This document shows, piece by piece, positions 5,100-14,021 of a stretch of DNA of 48,722 nucleotides (positions are counted from its first letter, which is position 1; every line of letters begins with the position of its first letter). A model generated the notes under the pieces. That model ran no database searches. It had not been told where the DNA came from and saw only the letters and a list, made by a program, of their open reading frames with translations. The stretch lies in contig JADMKJ010000004.1 in the NCBI GenBank assembly GCA_015478855.1, positions 1 to 48,722 of the forward strand, in the 5' to 3' direction. Position numbers and translations under genes: made by a program. Source of the DNA: Proteiniphilum sp. (lineage in GTDB: Bacteria; Bacteroidota; Bacteroidia; Bacteroidales; Dysgonomonadaceae).

Positions 5100-7652
5100 A
5101 TGAAAAAAAAGAGCTACACTTTTGACGAAGCAAATAGTGCATCGTTGGAGTATTTTAAGGGTGATGAGCTTGCGGCGAAGGTATGGGTGAGCAAGTACGC
5201 GCTTAAAGACAGTCAGGGAGTGATCTATGAGAAGACACCCGAGGATATGCATTGGCGATTGGCAAAAGAAGTTGCGAGGATCGAGAAAAAGTATGCCAAT
5301 CCATTGAGTGAAAAAGAGCTGTTTGATCTGTTCGATCAGTTCAGGTATATTATTCCGCAAGGGAGTCCCATGACCGGTATAGGGAACGATTTCCAGGTAG
5401 CTTCATTGTCCAACTGTTTTGTGATCGGGATGGATGGTAACGCCGATTCATACGGTGCGATCATCCGTATCGATGAGGAACAGGTGCAACTAATGAAACG
5501 TCGTGGAGGTGTGGGACATGACCTGTCGCACATCCGTCCAAAGGGATCACCCGTCAAGAATTCCGCACTGACATCCACGGGGTTAGTTCCATTTATGGAA
5601 CGATATTCCAACTCCACGCGTGAGGTGGCACAAGACGGCCGGCGCGGTGCCCTGATGCTGAGTGTTTCTATCAACCATCCCGATTCGGAGAATTTTATTG
5701 ATGCCAAGCTGGAACAGGGGAAGGTGACCGGTGCCAATATATCGGTGAAAATAGACGATGATTTCATGAAGGCCGCTGCCGAAAAGATACCCTATGTTCA
5801 GAAGTATCCCATCGGATCAGACCAGCCGAAATATCAGAAGACTATCAATGCGCAGGATCTCTGGAACAAAATTGTACACAACGCATGGCAATCGGCCGAG
5901 CCGGGAGTGCTCTTCTGGGATACCATCATCCGTGAGTCGGTGCCCGACTGTTATGCCGACCTGGGTTTCAAGACCGTTTCCACAAATCCCTGCGGTGAGA
6001 TACCGTTGTGTACCTACGACAGTTGTCGTCTGCTGGCTATCAACCTCTACTCATACGTGGTGAACCCATTTAAGGAGGATGCATATTTCGATTTCGACCT
6101 GTTTGGCAAGCATGTGCAGCTGGCACAACGGATCATGGATAATATTGTCGACCTTGAGTCGGAGAAGATAGACAAGATACTGGAAAAAATTGATAATGAT
6201 CCTGAGACGGAAGAGGTGAAATCATCCGAACGCACCCTCTGGAAGAAGATCCAGCGGAAAACATTACAGGGTCGTCGTACAGGTGTGGGTATCACCGCCG
6301 AGGGGGATATGCTGGCTGCATTGGGTATCCGTTACGGGACCGACGAGGGTACCGATTTCTCAGAGAAGGTACATCGCGCCGTAGCCATCAATGCGTACCG
6401 TTCATCGGTAGATATGGCCAAAGAGCGGGGTGCTTTTGAGATCTTCGATGCCGAAAGAGAAAAAAACAATCCTTTCATCAATCGGCTGAAAGATGCTGAT
6501 CCACAGATGTATGAAGATATGGTGAAGTACGGGCGGCGCAATATTGCCTGTCTCACTATCGCTCCTACAGGCACCACCAGCCTGATGTCACAGACCACCT
6601 CGGGGATCGAGCCGGTATTCCTTCCGGTTTATAAACGGCGTAGAAAGGTGAATCCGAACGACAGGGATGTGAAGGTCGATTTCATTGATGAAAATGGTGA
6701 TTCGTGGGAGGAATATGTGGTGTTCCATCACAAATTTGTGACATGGATGGAAGCACAGGGTTATCCGACCACCAAGCGCTTCAGCAGTGAAGAGATCGAC
6801 GAGCTGGTAGCCAAATCACCCTACTACAAGGCCACCTCCAATGATGTGGACTGGTTGCAGAAGGTAAAAATGCAGGGACGCGTACAGAAATGGGTGGACC
6901 ACTCCATCAGTGTGACCATCAACCTGCCCAACGATGCGACGGAAGAGCTGGTGGGTGAGTTGTATATGGAAGCCTGGAAGAGTGGCTGCAAGGGATGTAC
7001 TGTCTACCGTGACGGATCACGTGCAGGGGTACTACTCTCAAATGATAAAGAGGATAAGAAAGAGAATGAAGAAGCAGATGACGACTGTTATGAAATGCCT
7101 CAGATCGTCACCTCGCGTCCTATTGAGCTGCAAGCCGATGTGATCAAGTTCCAGAATAACAAGGAGAAGTGGATCGCTTTCATCGGGTTGTTGAACGGCA
7201 GGCCCTATGAAATATTTACCGGTATCAACGATGAGGACGATGGTATCATGGTGCCGAAGACTGTCTCTACCGGTAAAATCATCAAAGCGTACGACAATGA
7301 CGGCCGGAAGCACTACGATTTTCAGTTTCAGACACGCAGGGGGTATAAGGTAACCATTGAGGGACTGGATGGGAAGTTCAATCCTGAGTACTGGAACTAT
7401 GCCAAGCTGATCTCAGGGGTGCTGCGTTACGGTATGCCCATTGACCAGGTGATCAAGCTGGTGTCGGGGCTGGAGCTCGACAGTGAGACCATCAACACCT
7501 GGAAGAACGGAGTGGAAAGGGCACTGAAGAAATACCTGCCCAGTGAAACGGAAGCGAAAGGGCAGAAATGCCCCGTCTGCGGACATGAGACCCTGGTCTA
7601 CGAGGAGGGGTGTCTGAAATGCCGCAACTGCGGTGCTTCCAAGTGCGGGTAA
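5100..7652 (+). CDS. nrdJ: Adenosylcobalamin-dependent (class II) ribonucleoside reductase
   Basis: An 850-residue enzyme that reduces ribonucleotides to deoxyribonucleotides using a B12-derived radical, independent of oxygen. Active-site residues are visible: S-N-C-F-V-I-G with Cys106, and N-P-C-G-E-I-P-L with Asn296, Cys298 (thiyl radical position) and Glu300. Cys309 is spaced as the redox partner of Cys106. The late barrel motif C-L-T-I-A-P-T-G-T-T-S begins at Cys484. After the barrel comes a domain at about 690-800 resembling the TSCPD extension of long NrdJ proteins. A Cys-rich tail follows (C-P-V-C-G ... C-L-K-C-R-N-C-G ... K-C-G), a zinc-ribbon-like end that probably shuttles reducing power. 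No NrdA/NrdB or NrdD is nearby. No B12 riboswitch was found upstream. A strong stem-loop follows. Confidence 0.95.
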   Translation: MKKKSYTFDEANSASLEYFKGDELAAKVWVSKYALKDSQGVIYEKTPEDMHWRLAKEVARIEKKYANPLSEKELFDLFDQFRYIIPQGSPMTGIGNDFQVASLSNCFVIGMDGNADSYGAIIRIDEEQVQLMKRRGGVGHDLSHIRPKGSPVKNSALTSTGLVPFMERYSNSTREVAQDGRRGALMLSVSINHPDSENFIDAKLEQGKVTGANISVKIDDDFMKAAAEKIPYVQKYPIGSDQPKYQKTINAQDLWNKIVHNAWQSAEPGVLFWDTIIRESVPDCYADLGFKTVSTNPCGEIPLCTYDSCRLLAINLYSYVVNPFKEDAYFDFDLFGKHVQLAQRIMDNIVDLESEKIDKILEKIDNDPETEEVKSSERTLWKKIQRKTLQGRRTGVGITAEGDMLAALGIRYGTDEGTDFSEKVHRAVAINAYRSSVDMAKERGAFEIFDAEREKNNPFINRLKDADPQMYEDMVKYGRRNIACLTIAPTGTTSLMSQTTSGIEPVFLPVYKRRRKVNPNDRDVKVDFIDENGDSWEEYVVFHHKFVTWMEAQGYPTTKRFSSEEIDELVAKSPYYKATSNDVDWLQKVKMQGRVQKWVDHSISVTINLPNDATEELVGELYMEAWKSGCKGCTVYRDGSRAGVLLSNDKEDKKENEEADDDCYEMPQIVTSRPIELQADVIKFQNNKEKWIAFIGLLNGRPYEIFTGINDEDDGIMVPKTVSTGKIIKAYDNDGRKHYDFQFQTRRGYKVTIEGLDGKFNPEYWNYAKLISGVLRYGMPIDQVIKLVSGLELDSETINTWKNGVERALKKYLPSETEAKGQKCPVCGHETLVYEEGCLKCRNCGASKCG

Positions 7653-7722
7653 AATCTTCATGATTCACTTATAGAGCGGTGAAAAGATCAATTCTGTTCC
7701 TTAAAAGAGGAAACCGATAATT

Positions 7723-7757
7723 CAAAAAGGGGGTGTCGATCGAAACCCCCTTTTTGG
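7723..7757 (+). terminator. Intrinsic terminator after nrdJ
   Basis: CAAAAAGGGGG pairs with CCCCCTTTTTG around a 12-base loop. Because the stem has A and T runs on both sides it could act in both directions, ending nrdJ and any transcript leaving the minus-strand pseudogenes. Confidence 0.85.
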
Positions 7758-7925
7758 TTCACCACTGTCTTCTTTTCTCGGTGATACGCTACACCGCCAG
7801 CACCCTCATCAGGACACACTTAAAATGATGTTATCCCAGAAAATAACAGTGAAAATGGTCGAATTTGATATCTCCGCTCTATCGACATCATGTCTGTATA
7901 AGAAAGAAAACAAAACTTTTTTTAT
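7758..7925. other. Short gene-free gap
   Basis: No convincing reading frame, RNA or promoter is seen between the nrdJ terminator and the truncated outer-membrane-protein remnant. The sequence on the remnant side does not continue its protein, so the break point of the deletion lies at about 7926. Confidence 0.5.
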
Positions 7926-8424
7926 TCAATAGATTTTGCGCTGATAGGCGAAAACTCCATTTCGAAGAACGTGGAACCCGGGCATACGTTTAATGATGTC
8001 GCCAAGTGTGATGTCGTTTTCTTTAGCAAATGAGGATGCAAGATAGCGTGTAGTATCTCCCACACCCGATATCCTGGCTGATTTTATCAACACTTCATTC
8101 AATTGGATTGACTCCTCAACCAAAAGAAAAGAATAATCGGTTTTATTCTCGTCCAGCAGTATTGTTTGCGTTGCGTATCCCATCAAGCGGGCACGAATAA
8201 AGTGTGCATTTGCCATATCCACGTTTTTCAGGAAGAAATTACCTGAATTATCTGTTATGGCATAGGTAATCACATCACTTTCATCTTCAGAGGTGATTGT
8301 GATTACCACGCTCGACAAATTGCCCGCATCATCCCTAACCTATCCTTTTATATCCATAGTTTGCGATTTTAAAGAAGTAGATAACAGCATAAAAAAACAA
8401 AAAGAGGTCGGTAATACGTCTCAT
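7926..8424 (-). pseudogene. Remnant of a carboxypeptidase-regulatory/plug outer-membrane protein (second cassette copy)
   Basis: The N-terminal part of a protein related to the intact one at 8782-11406. Reading through the lesions gives a signal peptide (MRRITDLFLFF / MLLSTSLKSQT), a regulatory-like domain (V-R-D-D-A-G-N-L ... G-N-F-F-L-K-N-V), and the start of a plug (D-I-I-K-R-M-P-G-F-H-V) matching D-V-L-R-N-M-P-G-I-R-V of the intact copy. Three lesions are visible: a 7-T run at 8391-8397 that shifts the signal-peptide frame by one base, an in-frame TAG at 8340-8342, and a stop at 7926 soon after the plug begins, with the whole barrel missing. It starts 11 bases after the GLPGLI remnant, matching the 10-base gap of the intact pair. 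The signal-peptide shift is inferred, as no reference was compared. Confidence 0.8.
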
Positions 8425-8435
8425 AACCAACTTGT

Positions 8436-8781
8436 TTAAAAATCTCTTTCCAAGAAATTATATCTCGCACCACCGCTCGCCGGTATAAAGTCCGATTCAT
8501 TTTTTTTGGGTGAATTTGCCTCCAAATATCGAACCCAGCCAATATTGGATGCTTTGGCGTTGGTGCGCAAAAAGGTTATCCGGTCGGTACGGGTATATTT
8601 TCGGGCGCCGTATTCAATATATTCTATGGGTTCTCTGGTATTTTCCAGGCCGCTTATTTCAAAAGTGTAATGCCCTTTGGTGTCTTGGATGCTCATTATC
8701 AATCCGGGGAGCCCTGAAAATTTCCATGGACCGGCGTTCCCTACAATCGAAACAGGTGTGAAACTATTACCGATAAAGAAC
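8436..8781 (-). pseudogene. C-terminal remnant of a second GLPGLI family protein
   Basis: The frame contains G-P-W-K-F-S-G-L-P-G-L-I, the family's name motif, then H-Y-T-F-E-I-S-G-L-E-N, and runs to a normal-looking stop. It aligns by eye with residues after about 180 of the intact GLPGLI protein (G-P-Y-K-F-R-G-L-P-G-L-I ... H-Y-V-F-E-A-T-G-F-E). Its first about 175 residues are missing: the open frame begins immediately at the stop codon of the intact outer-membrane protein (8782), where a stop lies just upstream in frame. No start codon fits a signal peptide. It is therefore a 5'-truncated fragment left by deletion after tandem duplication. Confidence 0.85.
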
Positions 8782-11406
8782 TTAGAAGTTTAAATTCATT
8801 TTTATCATAATCTCCCGGGGTCTCATGGTACGTGTAATGCGCGATTTATAGAAATCTACGACATTCTCAAAAACATAATGCGTCTGGTTTGTTAAATTTC
8901 TTATTTCCAAGCTGATATCCATCTTTTTAAATCTATATAAAACATTAAAATTAGCGAAATAGTAATTTACCTTTTTCGTGCGAAAAAGGTCCTGTTTTAT
9001 ACCAACTTGTATATTGGTGCAAGGAAAAAAGTAAGTGGATAGCGAGTGTTGAAAATAGGATGTTGAAAAATTATTATTTCCTGTATCGTTCCCTGCAAGC
9101 ATATTATTGATATATCTCAGTTCATATTCATTATTGAACCATTTTCGGGGTTGTATTGTCACACCTAAATTTATCGAATAGGATTTACTGGAAAAATCAG
9201 TTTGCCGGTTTTGTACTATATATGTATACTCACTTTCTTTATAAAACCCATTCAAAAAGAGTTTCGTGTTCCACCAGCCAAACATTTTAGATCCACTTAT
9301 TCCCAGTATGGGAGAATAAATATTATTTTTCGTGAACAGTGACTCGTTTTGTTGGAAAAGGTCATCTATAAAGAATGTTTTATTTATTAAATGACGTTTC
9401 ATGATGGAATACCCTGCTGACCCTTCCATGAAAAAACCTTTTACAGGGTTTCTGTATATCAAAGATAATACATATTTATGAGAAAGACTTTGTGTTGGTT
9501 TTCCGGTGAAAGAGTTCAGGATCCTATAATTGATAAATATTGTTTGAGGATATAATGTTCGAATGTCTGCAATATTATCCGTCACTTGTCCCTTTAAGGA
9601 TAGCGTCAACCAATTAGAGGGATAATATTTTAACCCGGCAGAAGGAAGAAAATGAACGAAAGTGTACCCGTTTTGCAACGAATCCTTATTTTGTATCGTT
9701 ACAGATGAATGTTTTAGTAATAAATTGAAGTAATAATCCAACTTATCGGATTTGTATCCCATTTGCGTCTCAACATATGAAGTGATATTTTTGAAAGCCG
9801 CATCGTTTTCATGATCCAGGATATCTATTAATGCCGGTGGATGTGAGAGAGAGTTTAACCTCTGGGAGGTAAAATCAACTCCTATATTATTTTTTATCTG
9901 ATATTTGTTAAGTTGAAAGGTATATGATACCTGATTGGAAGTAGTCATATTTTTTAATGCATATTCTTGTGTATAAGGATGCGTTTTAGATGCATCTCCT
10001 ATCTGAAACGATGCAAAGTGTGATAAAGTAGCGAGCTGAGTAAGTGAGGTCGCTTCCAGACGTCCTTTTTTTCGAGGAATAACTATCCTAAAATCGTTTC
10101 GCAACAATTGTTGAGGTAGATTATATTTTTCTTCAATGTCATATTGATGTGTAACAATTCGATTGTGTTGTTCAGCCCAAATGATATTGGAAGACAATTT
10201 ATTACTCAAATAAAAGTTGTCAGCATTGTGGGTGTAAGAAAGCTCACCCTCCAGCTTGTTTTGGTAACTATTACTCTTTTTTAATTCCTGAATAATCAAT
10301 GTAGAATCAACATCCAGAACAGCCGACACTTCCGAATCCAACTGTTGCCTTTCTTTGTTTTTCAAGTAACTGATTTGATATCTTAAATTTTTGTCTTCAG
10401 AAAGCTTCCAGATCTGGTTGGATGTGATAAGGTGCGAGGCATTCAATTGATATTTTTTCTTATCCATAGGGAGAGAGGATATCATGCTCGGTTGAAACAG
10501 TCCTCTCTCCACTTTTGGCATTCGTGCATCTATGATAATCTCGGAAATAGTTGCCGGAGAAGATAGCTCGGATGCTATATCCTCTCCGGTGCTGTTGTTT
10601 TTATACATGCTTAGATTTTGAGCACTTTTCCCAAAAGACATAGCCATGAGCCTATTGTCCCAAAGGGTAAGTGGCAGCCCAACACCAAAATCAACCGAGA
10701 ATAGCCATCGCTGTTTTGCCCCTTCATTAAGCACCAAATTTATCGCCGCCTGTTCACCAAATGTTTTACCCCTCAGGCTCTTTACCGGTTCATGCTGTTG
10801 CAATACCTGCACATATTCCACGTAATCAGCTTTTAAATTATTGGAGGCGAGTTTATATTTTTCATCAAGCAAGTCTACACCTTCAATATAAAATTTGTTG
10901 ATGGGCTCTCCCTGATAATAAATAGTACCTTCATCTGTGACCCGGATACCCGGCATGTTGCGTAAAACATCGGCGATACTCCTATCTTGAGCCATTTTAA
11001 ACCGGGCCACGTTATAGATTAGCGTATCTCCCTGCTCCTTTATGGGGTGCGATATTATTTCTACTTCCGGCAATGGTATTTCCGTGGGTGTTAATTCAAT
11101 AATGGTATTTGATTTAAAGATACGTAACAGGTTCTTTTGCTCCATGTAGCCAAGATAAGAGAATACGATGCTATGCCCATCCACAATGCTTTTCTTATTC
11201 AATTCAATGCTAAAAGTCCCATTTTCATCAGAATAAACATAATCTATTATTGCATCGTTTAAGTCAAGAATATAGACGGATGCCCCGCTAATCCCTATTT
11301 TAGTGTTAGAATCAATAATCCGTCCTTCAATATTAACTGTTTGGGACAAACATACATTCAGAAAGGATAAACAGAAAAGGAGGAGTAGCACCCAATATTT
11401 AGGCAT
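8782..11406 (-). CDS. Outer-membrane beta-barrel protein with carboxypeptidase-regulatory-like and plug domains
   Basis: An 874-residue TonB-receptor-like protein. Residues 1-21 are a signal peptide (M-P-K-Y-W-V-L-L-L-L-F ... L-S-Q). Residues about 24-110 are a carboxypeptidase-D-regulatory-like domain (V-N-I-E-G-R-I-I-D ... G-I-S-G-A-S-V-Y-I). A plug follows at about 135-235 (S-I-A-D-V-L-R-N-M-P-G-I-R-V and K-F-Y-I-E-G-V-D-L-L). The rest is a long barrel of alternating polar/aromatic strands ending in M-N-L-N-F with a terminal Phe, as in many outer-membrane barrels. No classical TonB box is seen, and there is no SusD partner. It starts 10 bases after the GLPGLI stop, so the two are surely co-transcribed. 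The cargo is unknown; the small peptide gene upstream suggests peptide transport or secretion, but this is inference. Confidence 0.88.
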   Translation of the reverse strand: MPKYWVLLLLFCLSFLNVCLSQTVNIEGRIIDSNTKIGISGASVYILDLNDAIIDYVYSDENGTFSIELNKKSIVDGHSIVFSYLGYMEQKNLLRIFKSNTIIELTPTEIPLPEVEIISHPIKEQGDTLIYNVARFKMAQDRSIADVLRNMPGIRVTDEGTIYYQGEPINKFYIEGVDLLDEKYKLASNNLKADYVEYVQVLQQHEPVKSLRGKTFGEQAAINLVLNEGAKQRWLFSVDFGVGLPLTLWDNRLMAMSFGKSAQNLSMYKNNSTGEDIASELSSPATISEIIIDARMPKVERGLFQPSMISSLPMDKKKYQLNASHLITSNQIWKLSEDKNLRYQISYLKNKERQQLDSEVSAVLDVDSTLIIQELKKSNSYQNKLEGELSYTHNADNFYLSNKLSSNIIWAEQHNRIVTHQYDIEEKYNLPQQLLRNDFRIVIPRKKGRLEATSLTQLATLSHFASFQIGDASKTHPYTQEYALKNMTTSNQVSYTFQLNKYQIKNNIGVDFTSQRLNSLSHPPALIDILDHENDAAFKNITSYVETQMGYKSDKLDYYFNLLLKHSSVTIQNKDSLQNGYTFVHFLPSAGLKYYPSNWLTLSLKGQVTDNIADIRTLYPQTIFINYRILNSFTGKPTQSLSHKYVLSLIYRNPVKGFFMEGSAGYSIMKRHLINKTFFIDDLFQQNESLFTKNNIYSPILGISGSKMFGWWNTKLFLNGFYKESEYTYIVQNRQTDFSSKSYSINLGVTIQPRKWFNNEYELRYINNMLAGNDTGNNNFSTSYFQHSLSTYFFPCTNIQVGIKQDLFRTKKVNYYFANFNVLYRFKKMDISLEIRNLTNQTHYVFENVVDFYKSRITRTMRPREIMIKMNLNF

Positions 11407-11416
11407 AGATAAAATA

Positions 11417-12256
11417 TTATTTACTTAACTCTATTGGTAGATAGGCATCTGATCGAATACCTTCCTTGCTTCTCTCCCCCGGCGTAGAAATGCCTTCAAT
11501 TTTAACGCCAAGACTTTGGGCTATAAAATTGAGAGGATCTGTTACGAAGGAATATTGAATTTTAAGAAAATCTTTTTTCGATATTTTGTGGAACCCTTTA
11601 ACGTCGTATATGATATCTTCAGGAGTCAATAGTTTTTCAAATCCTGTAGCTTCAAAAACATAATGATTATTTGTATCGTGTAACTTCAGGATTAGGCCTG
11701 GTAAACCTCTAAATTTATAGGGTCCATACTTAATTGGGATTTCAGTTGTAAACCAAGCTTCGTAATTTCGACCCATGTAAGTACAGGTGGCTTTCTGGCA
11801 ATTATATTTCAAGATCAATTTCTTTTCAGATGTGATAGTCCATTGGATGGGCAATAAATCTTCTTCGTAATAATAGTTGTTTCTTCGTCCAACCAGTTCA
11901 TCCTGGTACGTTATCTTTCCATTTGGATAATTCGTATACACTTTGTAGTTATTCACTCCTTTGGGAGATTCTTTAATCTTGTTCATATCGAAAGTCCCGC
12001 TTTCCTGCATTTTTCTTTTATATGCATCCTTTTCTTTTTTCCGCGAACTGTAAAAAACAACCGAGTTTTCACCTATATCCAAATTCATGAAGTCTGTAGT
12101 GAAATAATTCGCATCAAGCGTATCTTTCAATGTTGTATTTTTGTATTGGCATCGGTATACCGCTTTATCAATTACCGTTTGAGAGAAAACTCTTTGAGAC
12201 ATCAGATTTGTCACAACCAATACAGCAATAACAAGATAAAATTTTTTTTCATGCAT
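11417..12256 (-). CDS. GLPGLI family secreted protein
   Basis: A protein of unknown function named for its motif, here K-F-R-G-L-P-G-L-I-L-K-L at about residue 185-195. The chosen start (MHEKKFYLVIAVLVV) gives 279 residues with a clear signal peptide ending near F-S-Q; a longer frame from 12304 adds 16 residues with no signal logic. Other family traits are a Tyr-rich middle (N-N-Y-Y-Y-E-E-D), and N-C-Q-K-A-T-C-T-Y with two close Cys residues before A-W-F-T. The product should be periplasmic or surface exposed. It is followed 10 bases later by the barrel protein and preceded by the small peptide gene. Family function is not established; genetic linkage to plug/barrel proteins is the main clue. 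Confidence 0.88.
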   Translation of the reverse strand: MHEKKFYLVIAVLVVTNLMSQRVFSQTVIDKAVYRCQYKNTTLKDTLDANYFTTDFMNLDIGENSVVFYSSRKKEKDAYKRKMQESGTFDMNKIKESPKGVNNYKVYTNYPNGKITYQDELVGRRNNYYYEEDLLPIQWTITSEKKLILKYNCQKATCTYMGRNYEAWFTTEIPIKYGPYKFRGLPGLILKLHDTNNHYVFEATGFEKLLTPEDIIYDVKGFHKISKKDFLKIQYSFVTDPLNFIAQSLGVKIEGISTPGERSKEGIRSDAYLPIELSK

Positions 12257-12296
12257 AACAAGATAAATTTTAATTTTACAATTTAACTTAAAGCAG

Positions 12297-12330
12297 AAGG
12301 ACAAGATCCAGATATACGGATCTTATCCTT
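12297..12330 (-). promoter_or_regulatory. Stem-loop between the small peptide gene and the GLPGLI gene
   Basis: On the transcribed strand AAGGATAAGATCC pairs with GGATCTTGTCCTT (13 bp including one G-U) around an 8-base loop. It begins 14 bases after the peptide stop and lies 41 bases before the chosen GLPGLI start. There is no good T run after it, so it is better seen as an attenuator or RNA-stability hairpin than a full terminator. It would let the peptide be made in excess of the two large downstream proteins. Confidence 0.6.
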
Positions 12331-12343
12331 CTTTCTTATAAAC

Positions 12344-12520
12344 TTATGGGCAAAGACTTTCCAATGCATCTACCGTCTCTATTACATCTTCCATAGTTTC
12401 ACATCCTATTACGTTATAGGTTGCACCACATGAAGTTGTAACATAAAATGCATTTGCAGCAAAAGCAATTAATGATAATGCTGCAATCAGAATCGTTTTC
12501 TTTATATTAAACTTTTTCAT
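12344..12520 (-). CDS. Small secreted cysteine-containing peptide, first gene of the GLPGLI cassette
   Basis: A 58-codon frame with a standard signal peptide: MKKFNIKKTI, a hydrophobic core L-I-A-A-L-S-L-I-A-F, and A-A-N-A as a likely cleavage site after residue 24. The predicted mature part is 34 residues with Cys at 31, 40 and 57, and an acidic stretch C-E-T-M-E-D-V-I-E-T-V-D-A-L-E-S-L-C-P at the end. An ATG start, two Lys-rich positive charges and the position directly upstream of two secreted proteins support it as real. The overall plan resembles the small NVEALA-type peptides of Bacteroidales (short signal, short acidic tail), but the motif itself is not present, so membership is only a possibility. 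It may be a substrate, signal or structural partner of the downstream proteins. I see no canonical TAnnTTTG box in front. Confidence 0.72.
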   Translation of the reverse strand: MKKFNIKKTILIAALSLIAFAANAFYVTTSCGATYNVIGCETMEDVIETVDALESLCP

Positions 12521-12658
12521 ACATTATATGATATTATACTTTATAAATGATGGAATAATATTCTATTTTAATACAGTTAAAACTGCACCACCATAATTGT
12601 TACTATTCTTCACTTTCGGAGGCATCCGGAAAATTAACTATACCCAAACCCGTGGGTG

Positions 12659-12688
12659 TTTGAATTTACCGTGTTTTTGTTATCTTTG
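12659..12688 (+). promoter_or_regulatory. Strong promoter-like element in front of a small RNA candidate
   Basis: TTTG at 12659-12662, 18 bases, then TATCTTTG at 12681-12688, a full match to the Bacteroidota -33/-7 pattern. No coding frame follows for over 700 bases on this strand, pointing to a non-coding transcript that starts near 12693. Confidence 0.75.
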
Positions 12689-12692
12689 CAGC

Positions 12693-12840
12693 GCCTTTCT
12701 TTGTTAGTTTAGTGATACTTCCTGTGAGCTTGCTTTCATTTTGGTAGTTTTCGCTTTCCTGGCGAGGGAAGGCTTTTTTTAGCTGTCAATCTTTTTGGAT
12801 TTCAAGCATTTAGTTGGCGGGTTCTGAGTCCGCTTTTTCT
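12693..12840 (+). ncRNA. Candidate small non-coding RNA
   Basis: A structured stretch follows the promoter with no start codon linked to a plausible protein. A terminator-like hairpin GCTTTCC / GGAAGGC (12753-12773) is followed by seven T (12774-12780). The 5' end carries GCCTTTC (12693-12699), which can pair with the same GGAAGGC, so the 3' arm has two possible partners. A second small GC stem (GCGGG / TCCGC, 12817-12833) followed by T-rich sequence could be the real 3' end. The RNA is thus either about 90 or about 145 bases. The closing-stem layout could fit a 6S-like RNA, or a terminator/antiterminator leader. I do not recognise a named family. Confidence 0.5.
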
Positions 12841-12845
12841 TGTTA

Positions 12846-13427
12846 CTTTTTTTCATTGATAAAACTTACCGTTAATCATATCCTTCATGATTAGTTCTTG
12901 CTCAAAATATCACAAATATTTTGAGTGATACATTTGATCAAACGCGATAAAGAGCACTTTGAAATAGACTTGCTGCAAAATTTACGAAGTATTGCGCCAT
13001 TCTCCCTTTCCATGGAATTGAGCATTGAGATATTAGATGAAGGAGAGGGGTATATGTTTTTTTAAAAGTTAGGAGGCAAATCCAATCTTTTTTTGGAGGT
13101 TTTCTAACAATGCCTCGTGATGTGTAGTCCATTGCTTTGAAATTAAAAGTATAAGAATAGAATAAAAAAAAATTGAAAGTATTCAACAAACATATTAAAC
13201 AGAACGGTATATCATATCAATATTAATATAATAAATAATAATAAAGATTAAATATTGAATATATGTCTTAAATATGTAATTATTGTGTCCGTTTTGTTTA
13301 TTTCATCACATACAAAAATTAGGCGATAAAATGATTATACCAAATGTTTTACCGAATGAAGGGTTGTTGTATCAGTTTTTTGTGAAGATCTCAGAACCTT
13401 TCCAACCCTTTTTACTAATTTTGGGGT
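12846..13427. other. AT-rich gene-free stretch
   Basis: About 580 bases with no supported gene. The one long frame here (minus strand, 12938-13189) lacks a signal, a motif or a domain and has a poly-A-coded start region, so it is not called. The part at about 13190-13330 is extremely A+T rich. The TAATTTTG at 13416-13423 lies too close to the yigZ start to be its promoter unless the message is leaderless. Confidence 0.5.
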
Positions 13428-14021
13428 ATGGAGGATAGTTACAAAACCATTGAATATCCGGCAGAGGGGTATCTCACCGAGAAGAAGAGCAAGTTTATCT
13501 CGCACATTGTTCCGGTGAAGAGCGCTGAGGAGGTGAAGGAGATCGTTGAGGAGCATCGCAAGAAATATTACGATGCACGCCATGTCTGCTGGGCTTACAT
13601 GCTGGGGTGGGAGCGGGATGAGTTTCGTGCTAACGACGACGGCGAGCCGTCAGGTACGGCCGGTAAGCCGATTCTGGGGCAGATCAATTCGGCAGAACTG
13701 ACCGATGTGCTGATCCTGGTGGTGCGTTATTTTGGTGGTACGCTGCTGGGCACCGGTGGATTGATTAGGGCATACAAGGAGGCGGCAACTGATGCAATAG
13801 CCAATGCAGTGATCGTGGAGAAAACAGTGGATGATCTTATAACACTCTCATTTGAATATCCGTTGCTGAATGATGTGATGCGTGTGTTGAAACAGTTTGA
13901 CTCGGTCCGATGGACACAGGATTTCAGGGAGAGCTGCCAAATGAGGTTGCAGGTACGTCGTTCGCTGTCTTCCCAGCTGAGGGAGATGCTCTCGGCTATT
14001 TATGGGGTTGAATTTGTTTAG
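13428..14021 (+). CDS. yigZ: YigZ/IMPACT family protein
   Basis: A 197-residue cytoplasmic protein of the UPF0029/IMPACT family. The N-terminal domain carries the family signature: K-S-K-F-I-S-H near residue 20, Y-D-A-R-H-V-C-W-A-Y near 48, D-D-G-E-P-S-G-T-A-G-K-P near 70, and V-V-R-Y-F-G-G-T-L-L-G-T-G-G-L near 97. The C-terminal part (about 130-197) is the smaller ferredoxin-like domain. The molecular role is unsettled; relatives bind nucleic acid or regulate translation under stress. It begins at ATG with little leader. The gene is alone before topA, 173 bases away. Confidence 0.93.
   Translation: MEDSYKTIEYPAEGYLTEKKSKFISHIVPVKSAEEVKEIVEEHRKKYYDARHVCWAYMLGWERDEFRANDDGEPSGTAGKPILGQINSAELTDVLILVVRYFGGTLLGTGGLIRAYKEAATDAIANAVIVEKTVDDLITLSFEYPLLNDVMRVLKQFDSVRWTQDFRESCQMRLQVRRSLSSQLREMLSAIYGVEFV

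What the first reader, a model, noticed from the sequence alone, without database searches (positions are those of the whole stretch)
8782..12520. Three-gene cassette: tiny secreted Cys peptide, GLPGLI protein, plug/barrel outer-membrane protein
A 58-codon gene with a clean signal peptide and a 34-residue mature part with three Cys (31, 40, 57) sits first, followed by a GLPGLI protein and, 10 bases later, an 874-residue plug/barrel protein. All three are on the same strand and all are exported. GLPGLI proteins have no known function. The linkage suggests a unit in which a small exported peptide is carried, sensed or displayed by the outer-membrane protein, with GLPGLI as chaperone or partner. 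This is inference from gene order and signals.
Basis: partly seen in the sequence, partly recalled or inferred. Interest (0 to 1): 0.72.

Follow-up and report, generated by a model that had tools for sequence, protein, structure and literature searches.

The report
Secreted mini-peptide with GLPGLI partner cassette
A tiny exported bacterial peptide, its uncharacterised partner protein and an outer-membrane barrel form a transferable gene cassette with relatives in other Bacteroidota, which suggests that at least some of the widespread GLPGLI proteins of unknown function serve small secreted peptides.

Summary
In detail: three genes on the minus strand, as stated. The 58-codon gene is real: against a relative it has 19 nucleotide but 4 amino-acid changes (random placement averaged 13.3; 0 of 20,000 as few). 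The linkage is not chance: a small Sec-type ORF with at least two mature Cys lies directly 5' of 20 of 161 GLPGLI genes versus 2 of 880 other genes. Elsewhere that slot holds a double-glycine-leader Cys peptide (11 of 161 versus 4 of 855). Tandem peptide-GLPGLI pairs occur for both leader types. Both usually carry a strong RNA hairpin between peptide and GLPGLI. In the window's family both kinds also share a divergent, undescribed ~92-nt structured-RNA candidate (13 of 14 copies head a peptide gene). The cassette is an accessory island, absent from the closest relative sampled and identical over ~6 kb with a more distant species. Best reading: a transferable secretion module for small, mostly acidic Cys peptides, with GLPGLI as cognate periplasmic partner and the plug-barrel protein as outer-membrane conduit. 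Transport, its direction and the peptide's activity are inferred. The passages I saw on GLPGLI proteins give no function.

The parts
12344..12520 (-). 58-codon gene: Sec signal peptide (1-24) and 34-residue acidic mature peptide with Cys 31/40/57; predicted strand-strand-helix
   Evidence: selection; model, pLDDT 70-77 by block over the mature part, pTM 0.37
12295..12332 (-). intercistronic RNA hairpin (16 pairs) between peptide gene and GLPGLI gene; attenuator or 3'-stabiliser, inferred
   Evidence: searches (stem; whole gap -28.6 kcal/mol, z -6.3), control
11417..12256 (-). GLPGLI family protein, 279 aa, signal-like N-terminus; Cys 36, 153, 158
   Evidence: TIGR01200 198 bits, model pLDDT 77, pTM 0.73, Cys
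8782..11406 (-). 874-aa protein: signal-like N-terminus, CarboxypepD_reg-like domain, plug-like region, barrel (outer-membrane location inferred)
12688..12780 (+). candidate ~92-nt structured small RNA gene, transcribed away from the peptide gene, ending in a terminator-like site (12753-12780); expression not shown
   Evidence: no Rfam match
12645..12688 (+). shared promoter-like region of the RNA: inverted repeat 12645-12662, TTTG 12659-12662, TATCTTTG 12681-12688 (Bacteroides -33/-7 consensus recalled)
8556..8741 (-). remnant of a second GLPGLI gene (C-terminal part only)
   Evidence: TIGR01200 53.5 bits, profile 165-226 of 229
7926..8318 (-). remnant of a second CarboxypepD_reg/plug-barrel gene (N-terminal part only)
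7653..13427 (.). accessory island between the ribonucleotide-reductase-like gene (ends 7652) and the IMPACT-like gene (starts 13428; both names are my reading); 71 nt separate the two genes in the closest relative sampled
   Evidence: identity profile

Best explanation
The cassette is a transferable secretion module for one small peptide. The peptide enters the periplasm through Sec, folds as a disulfide-stabilised strand-strand-helix mini-protein, is bound by its own GLPGLI protein, and crosses the outer membrane with the help of the TonB-transporter-like plug-barrel protein, to act outside the cell on neighbours (bacteriocin-like or signalling). Shown: the genes, selection on the peptide, the recurring order, one-to-one tandem pairs in some loci, the shared hairpin and RNA element, the island and its identity with another species. 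Inferred: periplasmic binding, disulfides, transport and its direction, high peptide output because of the hairpin, and action on neighbours.
For: Linkage: 20 of 161 GLPGLI genes versus 2 of 880 other genes have a Sec-type ORF with at least 2 mature Cys within 300 nt 5'. Reverse direction: of 12 rows at E <= 1e-4 from a peptide profile over 393 genomes, 10 lie directly 5' of GLPGLI (7 of these 10 were not in the training set), one starts a decayed cassette, one is the start of a further peptide at a contig end. The same slot holds double-glycine Cys peptides at 11 of 161 versus 4 of 855; 9 of 10 double-glycine peptides scanned resemble the TIGR04149 leader, 7 over its cut-off, and such loci can carry C39, C39-VKOR or radical-SAM genes, i.e. 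peptide-export and maturation genes. Tandem peptide-GLPGLI pairs of either type: L136 x3, L126 x3, G871. Hairpins at z <= -3 in 15 of 18 Sec gaps and 5 of 8 GG gaps versus 24 of 182 other gaps. RNA copies: 13 of 14 divergent to a Sec or GG peptide gene. Secretion that needs a TonB-dependent transporter has a precedent, Oar/PopC (PMC6434023, start of abstract and passages).
Against: 141 of 161 GLPGLI genes have no Sec Cys peptide by my rule, 150 of 161 no double-glycine one, and some loci pair GLPGLI/barrel with a divergent two-component system instead. The window peptide resembles the rest of the peptide set only weakly: 7.9 bits, 71 of 5000 shuffles as good, and the profiles do not list it in its own genome at the cut-offs used. 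Its odd Cys number leaves one unpaired. Strong hairpins also occur in 13 of 45 other gaps that touch a GLPGLI gene, so the hairpin is not exclusive. The RNA element is family-restricted as far as searched. No TonB box was tested, Plug scores below its Pfam cut-off, and no structure or experiment shows contact or transport.
Confidence: 0.5

Rival explanations
1. Peptide-plus-immunity: the peptide is an antibacterial agent, GLPGLI is its cognate periplasmic immunity protein and extra GLPGLI genes are orphan immunities; the barrel is exporter or receptor.
For: One-to-one tandem pairs in some loci and arrays with more GLPGLI genes than detected peptides; turnover at one locus (first pair: peptide 40%, GLPGLI 43% identical, two flanking proteins 92.5 and 98.4%); double-glycine leaders, C39 and radical-SAM neighbours; recent spread of the island.
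Against: Mature Sec peptides are mostly acidic (21 peptides, cut at residue 22, charge -13 to +2, median -6); many core residues are invariant in 10 diverse GLPGLI proteins, unusual for a pure immunity protein; no killing shown.
Confidence: 0.2
2. Uptake or sensing: the barrel with GLPGLI captures or senses the peptide (or what it binds) from outside and reports to the envelope.
For: TonB-dependent transporters are usually importers (established knowledge); 13 of 167 GLPGLI genes lie beside a divergent histidine-kinase-like gene (the response regulator of one such locus scores best with RprY, below cut-off).
Against: The two-component neighbour was scored only where no peptide was detected, and the window has none; the peptide is the first gene and is followed by a hairpin, as expected for a product made in excess (inference).
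Confidence: 0.15
3. The peptide is a periplasmic or envelope factor, for example a regulator or plug ligand of the barrel, that never leaves the cell.
For: Sec signal alone only guarantees the periplasm; one of the three Cys is unpaired.
Against: The same slot is filled in other loci by double-glycine-leader peptides, some with C39 export genes, and both types share hairpin and RNA element.
Confidence: 0.12

Closest known systems
GLPGLI family, TIGR01200 / Porph_ging PF09697
   Same: The middle gene is a full member (198 bits, cut-off 50; PF09697 47 bits, cut-off 25)
   Different: Three papers in the library hold the word; the passages of two that I saw give only annotation names, the third I saw only in the listing; the pairing with small peptides is not in those passages
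N-terminal bowl-like (NBL) domain of type II PNGases (4R4X, 7ZGN)
   Same: Hit of the GLPGLI profile to PNGF-II, E 0.002; Pfam PNGase_F-II_N over cut-off; 7ZGN is named Glpgli family protein in the PDB list, with a weak hit, E 0.19
   Different: No glycosidase domain here; NBL function is itself unknown (PMC9522356, passages)
Bacteroidales double-glycine radical-SAM peptides (TIGR04148/04149/04150)
   Same: Small Cys peptides; in some loci the same GLPGLI/barrel partners, hairpin layout and RNA element
   Different: The window peptide has a Sec-type signal, no double glycine, and no radical-SAM or C39 gene in its cassette
Oar-dependent secretion of PopC in Myxococcus xanthus
   Same: A plug-barrel TonB-dependent transporter required for export from the periplasm (PMC6434023, passages)
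   Different: PopC is a protease without signal peptide; homology of the barrels was not tested here
SusC-type and other TonB-dependent transporters
   Same: CarboxypepD_reg-like N-terminal domain; profile of 15 barrels meets the last strands of FpvA and an 85-residue SusC-homologue chain
   Different: No NCBIfam match of the window protein, SusC/RagA included; no SusD gene seen in the cassette

Membership tests
GLPGLI family (TIGR01200) | curated profile score over cut-off, GLPGLI motif | tested here: met
   198.4 bits versus 50; motif at 184-189
TonB-dependent transporter | N-terminal carboxypeptidase-regulatory-like domain as in many Bacteroidota transporters | tested here: met
   PF13715 33.0 bits versus 32.2
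TonB-dependent transporter | Plug domain (PF07715) | tested here: inconclusive
   window protein 15.6 bits, cut-off 23.9; 2 of 15 aligned barrels match at E <= 0.01
TonB-dependent transporter | C-terminal barrel homology | tested here: inconclusive
   profile of 15 barrels hits the last strands of FpvA, E 0.00085; the single window protein hits nothing
TonB-dependent transporter | TonB box / dependence on TonB | not tested
   needs experiment
Double-glycine radical-SAM peptide (TIGR04149) | double-glycine leader | tested here: not met
   no match of the window peptide; no GG in its sequence
Small-peptide families in Pfam/NCBIfam | a curated model that fits | tested here: not met
   window peptide: only matches at E 0.099 or worse; relatives scanned in NCBIfam (6, 24) and Pfam (7): a few scattered matches at E 0.0075 or worse
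Rfam RNA families | gathering score reached by the RNA-like element | tested here: not met
   0 matches in 7000-14000
Bacteriocin | killing or growth inhibition | not testable with these tools
   needs bench work

The most novel reading that the evidence does not exclude
GLPGLI proteins are dedicated periplasmic partners of small secreted Cys peptides in Bacteroidota, and GLPGLI plus plug-barrel is a common outer-membrane exit route fed by two inner-membrane routes (Sec or C39/double-glycine), with a shared hairpin in the operon and, in one family, a shared new small RNA beside the peptide genes.
Probability: 0.4. Interest if true: 0.87.

Novelty: new variant of a known kind. Interest (0 to 1): 0.72.

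Why it matters
GLPGLI proteins are common (38 of 101 relatives have a match, 28 over the cut-off; at least 596 stretches in one pattern scan), and the passages I saw give them no function. Pairing them with small exported peptides makes that testable: does GLPGLI bind its neighbour peptide, and is the barrel needed for release? It also offers a handle for finding secreted peptides that are short, divergent and match no family model, and a candidate route by which Bacteroidota move small peptides outward through a TonB-transporter-like barrel.

Tried and rejected
Chance ORF: rejected by selection and recurrence. Plasmid-borne: no blastn match of 7700-13300 in 72,556 plasmid records. Known peptide family: none that fits. 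Known RNA family: none. Sequence homology between Sec mature parts and double-glycine cores: of 20 pairs compared one (L075 with L070, 7 of 1000 shuffles as good) stands out, not significant over 20 pairs; the link rests on position, hairpin and RNA, not on core sequence. RNA pairing with its own peptide mRNA: cognate mean rank 5.5 of 13 (7 expected), no clear support. One origin of peptide-linked GLPGLI: not seen, the Sec label needs 13 changes on a quick tree of 174 rows. Co-evolution: mature peptide versus GLPGLI distances, rho 0.54, 0 of 2000 permutations as high in 26 pairs; with the barrel held constant 0.23, 31 of 2000, in 19 pairs, and peptide-barrel with GLPGLI held constant 0.26, 60 of 2000, so it mostly shows joint inheritance. 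Fold comparison of the GLPGLI model could not be run. Spread of the RNA in the order: own genome only among 393 (strict filters, 10 candidates scored per genome); its two diverged copies in G042 (L032) are not listed by that model either.

Limits: signal peptides were called by my own rule (charge plus hydrophobic stretch), not by a trained predictor; small ORFs by a mechanical rule. The 118 loci are the window, L032 and L069-L184, all chosen for GLPGLI (80 of them the best of at least 596 relatives); L031 was left out as a near copy of the window, and six loci (L097, L101, L105, L109, L123, L142) gave no GLPGLI gene by my rules. The two 'other' Sec hits (L164, L172) look like antisense frames. 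A stricter signal rule without Cys filter gave 21 of 164 versus 11 of 877. Other gap classes not in the headline: 13 of 45 (touching GLPGLI, no peptide) and 2 of 19 (other peptide gaps) at z <= -3.
Full report
What is there. On the minus strand the window holds a 58-codon gene (12520-12344), a GLPGLI gene (12256-11417) and, 10 nt on, an 874-codon gene (11406-8782). The GLPGLI protein scores 198 bits against TIGR01200 (cut-off 50). The long protein has a CarboxypepD_reg-like domain over its cut-off and a sub-threshold Plug match; a profile of 15 such proteins meets the last barrel strands of the FpvA receptor and an 85-residue SusC-homologue chain, while the single protein meets no solved structure. 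The mature peptide (34 residues after an Ala-X-Ala site, my reading) is acidic and has Cys 31, 40 and 57. A model gives strand 24-28, strand 34-38, helix 43-56 at pLDDT 70-77 by block over the mature part, pTM 0.37, so treat it as a suggestion. The GLPGLI model is mostly antiparallel beta (pLDDT 77, pTM 0.73).

The small gene is real. The peptide is found at strong scores in 3 of 101 genomes (own; G024 of the same genus, identical; G042 of another genus, 93%); the matches in 27 further genomes are at E 0.04 or worse. Against G042 there are 19 nucleotide differences, 14 at third positions, and 4 amino-acid changes, with all three Cys kept; none of 20,000 random placements gave so few. dN/dS is 0.10 for the peptide, 0.17 for GLPGLI, 0.20 for the barrel.

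The cassette recurs. I collected GLPGLI loci from relatives and from named genomes. Within 300 nt 5' on the same strand, a small ORF with a signal-like N-terminus and at least two mature Cys precedes 20 of 161 GLPGLI genes and 2 of 880 other genes (Fisher p 4e-15). The peptides are very divergent: 22 of them share two invariant Cys; in a set of 24 one stays invariant and the C-terminal one is kept in 90% or more. A profile of 22 peptides run over 393 genomes of the order matched in 64 genomes at E <= 0.01, nearly all weakly; 12 rows reach E <= 1e-4. Of these, 10 are directly 5' of a GLPGLI gene, 7 of them not used in training (in two, L190 and L192, my ORF rule did not pick the small frame that the profile hit); one (L195) is a decayed cassette with a barrel-like remnant; one is the start of a further peptide at a contig end in the own genome. 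Of the weaker rows I looked at 19 loci (L196-L214): none shows a GLPGLI gene, and where a frame was called it is the N-terminus of a longer protein. Over 395 genomes of the phylum 7 matched at 5e-4; three (own C16, L260, L261) are beside GLPGLI, two (G827, G118) are other proteins, two (G508, G523) I did not examine. Over 101 genomes of the family 8 matched; six are beside GLPGLI, two (G867, G040) are starts of long frames not examined further. The window peptide itself is an outlier of this set: 7.9 bits against a profile built without it and its near copy, 71 of 5000 shuffles as good, and it is not listed by the profile searches in its own genome. Its place in the set rests on position, signal, Cys spacing, hairpin and RNA element.

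Two leader types, one slot. In other loci the slot 5' of GLPGLI (within 600 nt) holds a double-glycine-leader peptide with at least two Cys: 11 of 161 GLPGLI genes versus 4 of 855 others. The four others stand in these same GLPGLI-selected loci: two directly before a radical-SAM gene (L032, L086), one further upstream in a GLPGLI cluster (L083), one in a C39-VKOR locus (L178). I scanned 10 double-glycine peptides (9 of those 11 and the one of L083): 9 resemble the TIGR04149 leader, 7 of them over its cut-off. Neighbours include a C39-VKOR-thioredoxin protein, C39 ABC exporters, TIGR04148 radical-SAM and TIGR04150 pseudo-radical-SAM proteins. Seen the other way, 5 of 19 TIGR04149 rows in 101 genomes lie within 3 kb of a GLPGLI match (places compared by eye). 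Tandem peptide-GLPGLI pairs exist for both types: three Sec pairs in L136, three double-glycine pairs in L126, several in G871. In G042 the window-type cassette lies inside a radical-SAM/C39/HlyD locus, and L081 lies beside one.

Two shared nucleic-acid features. First, the gap between peptide and GLPGLI usually contains a long hairpin. In the window it is 16 pairs, whole gap -28.6 kcal/mol, z -6.3. z <= -3 in 15 of 18 Sec gaps and 5 of 8 double-glycine gaps, versus 24 of 182 other same-strand gaps of 50-220 nt in the same loci (Mann-Whitney p 6e-11), 13 of 45 gaps that touch GLPGLI without a detected peptide, and 2 of 19 other peptide gaps. By inspection the stems have unrelated sequences. 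I infer an attenuator or mRNA stabiliser that makes the peptide the major product. Second, in the window's family a ~92-nt element lies divergent to the peptide gene (window 12688-12780, plus strand). It has a promoter box of Bacteroides type (TAnnTTTG, consensus recalled) in 12 of 13 copies inspected, the thirteenth (L275) differing in the last letter, a long imperfect hairpin (27 consensus pairs in 7 sequences, 3 with changes on both sides, others broken in one or two sequences, so covariation support is thin) and a terminator-like site. A covariance model found 14 copies in 8 of 101 genomes; 13 are divergent to a Sec or double-glycine peptide gene, the exception being L289 in G053; in the 13 pairs measured the distance to the start codon is 111-332 nt. 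In G871, four of five copies head a double-glycine peptide followed by a GLPGLI-family gene (one with GPPGLI in place of the motif), the fifth a double-glycine peptide followed by another exported-looking protein. G042 has two diverged copies, one at its Sec cassette and one at its double-glycine peptide. Thus both peptide types appear to share regulation. It has no Rfam match; I found no clear sign of pairing with its neighbour mRNA. Its expression is not shown.

Mobility. In the closest relative sampled (G006, TopA 96%) 71 nt separate the flanking genes. I fetched this site in 15 of the 38 other genomes of the genus: none shows the cassette, though the interval is not uniform (other genes lie in it in several, and the upstream neighbour is not in the stretch of L259). 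Yet G024, whose TopA is 81% identical, shares about 6 kb (7,750-13,750) at 100% (one 250-nt bin at 0.996) while most flanking bins lie near 0.8. This is a recent exchange by recombination in the flanking genes, unless the window contig is an assembly chimera, which I cannot exclude. Directly downstream lies a decayed second GLPGLI/barrel pair, present in both genomes. At a second locus (own contig C16 versus G006) two flanking proteins are 92.5 and 98.4% identical while the first peptide and GLPGLI are 40% and 43%; a 91% match (98 nt) to the start of the G006 peptide lies behind the first pair in the own genome, so this is array turnover rather than simple divergence.

How it most likely works. 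Sec exports the peptide; disulfide formation and folding follow; GLPGLI receives it; the plug-barrel protein passes it out. For double-glycine cousins the first step would be C39/ABC export. [quoted passage not shown] Oar/PopC (PMC6434023, start of abstract in the listing and passages) is the precedent for a TonB-dependent transporter in secretion. A graspetide survey (PMC8939145, passages) already predicts export by TonB-receptor-related proteins in Bacteroidetes, and a Bacteroidales peptide-mining paper (PMC10352776, passages) describes C39 exporters with outer-membrane proteins and does not contain the word TonB; neither is among the three papers that hold the word GLPGLI. That I found no report of the peptide-GLPGLI pairing rests on searches of an open-licence library only; most subscription journals and preprints are not covered.

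Verdict.

Noticed in passing
window 8741-7926, minus strand: Decayed second GLPGLI/barrel pair directly downstream of the cassette, also present in G024.
   Followed up: partly
window about 7,750-13,750: Block 100% identical to G024 (one 250-nt bin 0.996) inside flanks of about 80% identity: recent recombination or, not excluded, an assembly chimera.
   Followed up: partly
window 12688-12780, plus strand: Undescribed structured small-RNA candidate divergent to peptide genes, 14 copies in 8 of 101 family genomes.
   Followed up: yes
G000 contig C16 (L092) 1-1326: The window's own genome carries another Sec peptide-GLPGLI pair, followed at the contig end by the start of a further peptide.
   Followed up: partly
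L122 5319-5846: Two small signal-peptide ORFs without mature Cys in front of a GLPGLI gene: Cys-free members may exist.
   Followed up: no
L087, L098: Double-glycine Cys peptides that match TIGR04149 ('rSAM-modified') lie near a C39-VKOR protein, with no radical-SAM gene in the printed gene order: perhaps disulfide rather than radical-SAM products.
   Followed up: partly
L069, L071-L073, L082, L095, L111, L125, L127, L128 and others: GLPGLI-barrel pairs divergent from a histidine kinase/response regulator without a detected peptide: a second common architecture.
   Followed up: partly
L032 3825-4514: Short C39-peptidase gene (229 aa, no ABC part matched) directly behind the G042 cassette, as if the cassette had landed in an exporter locus.
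   Followed up: no
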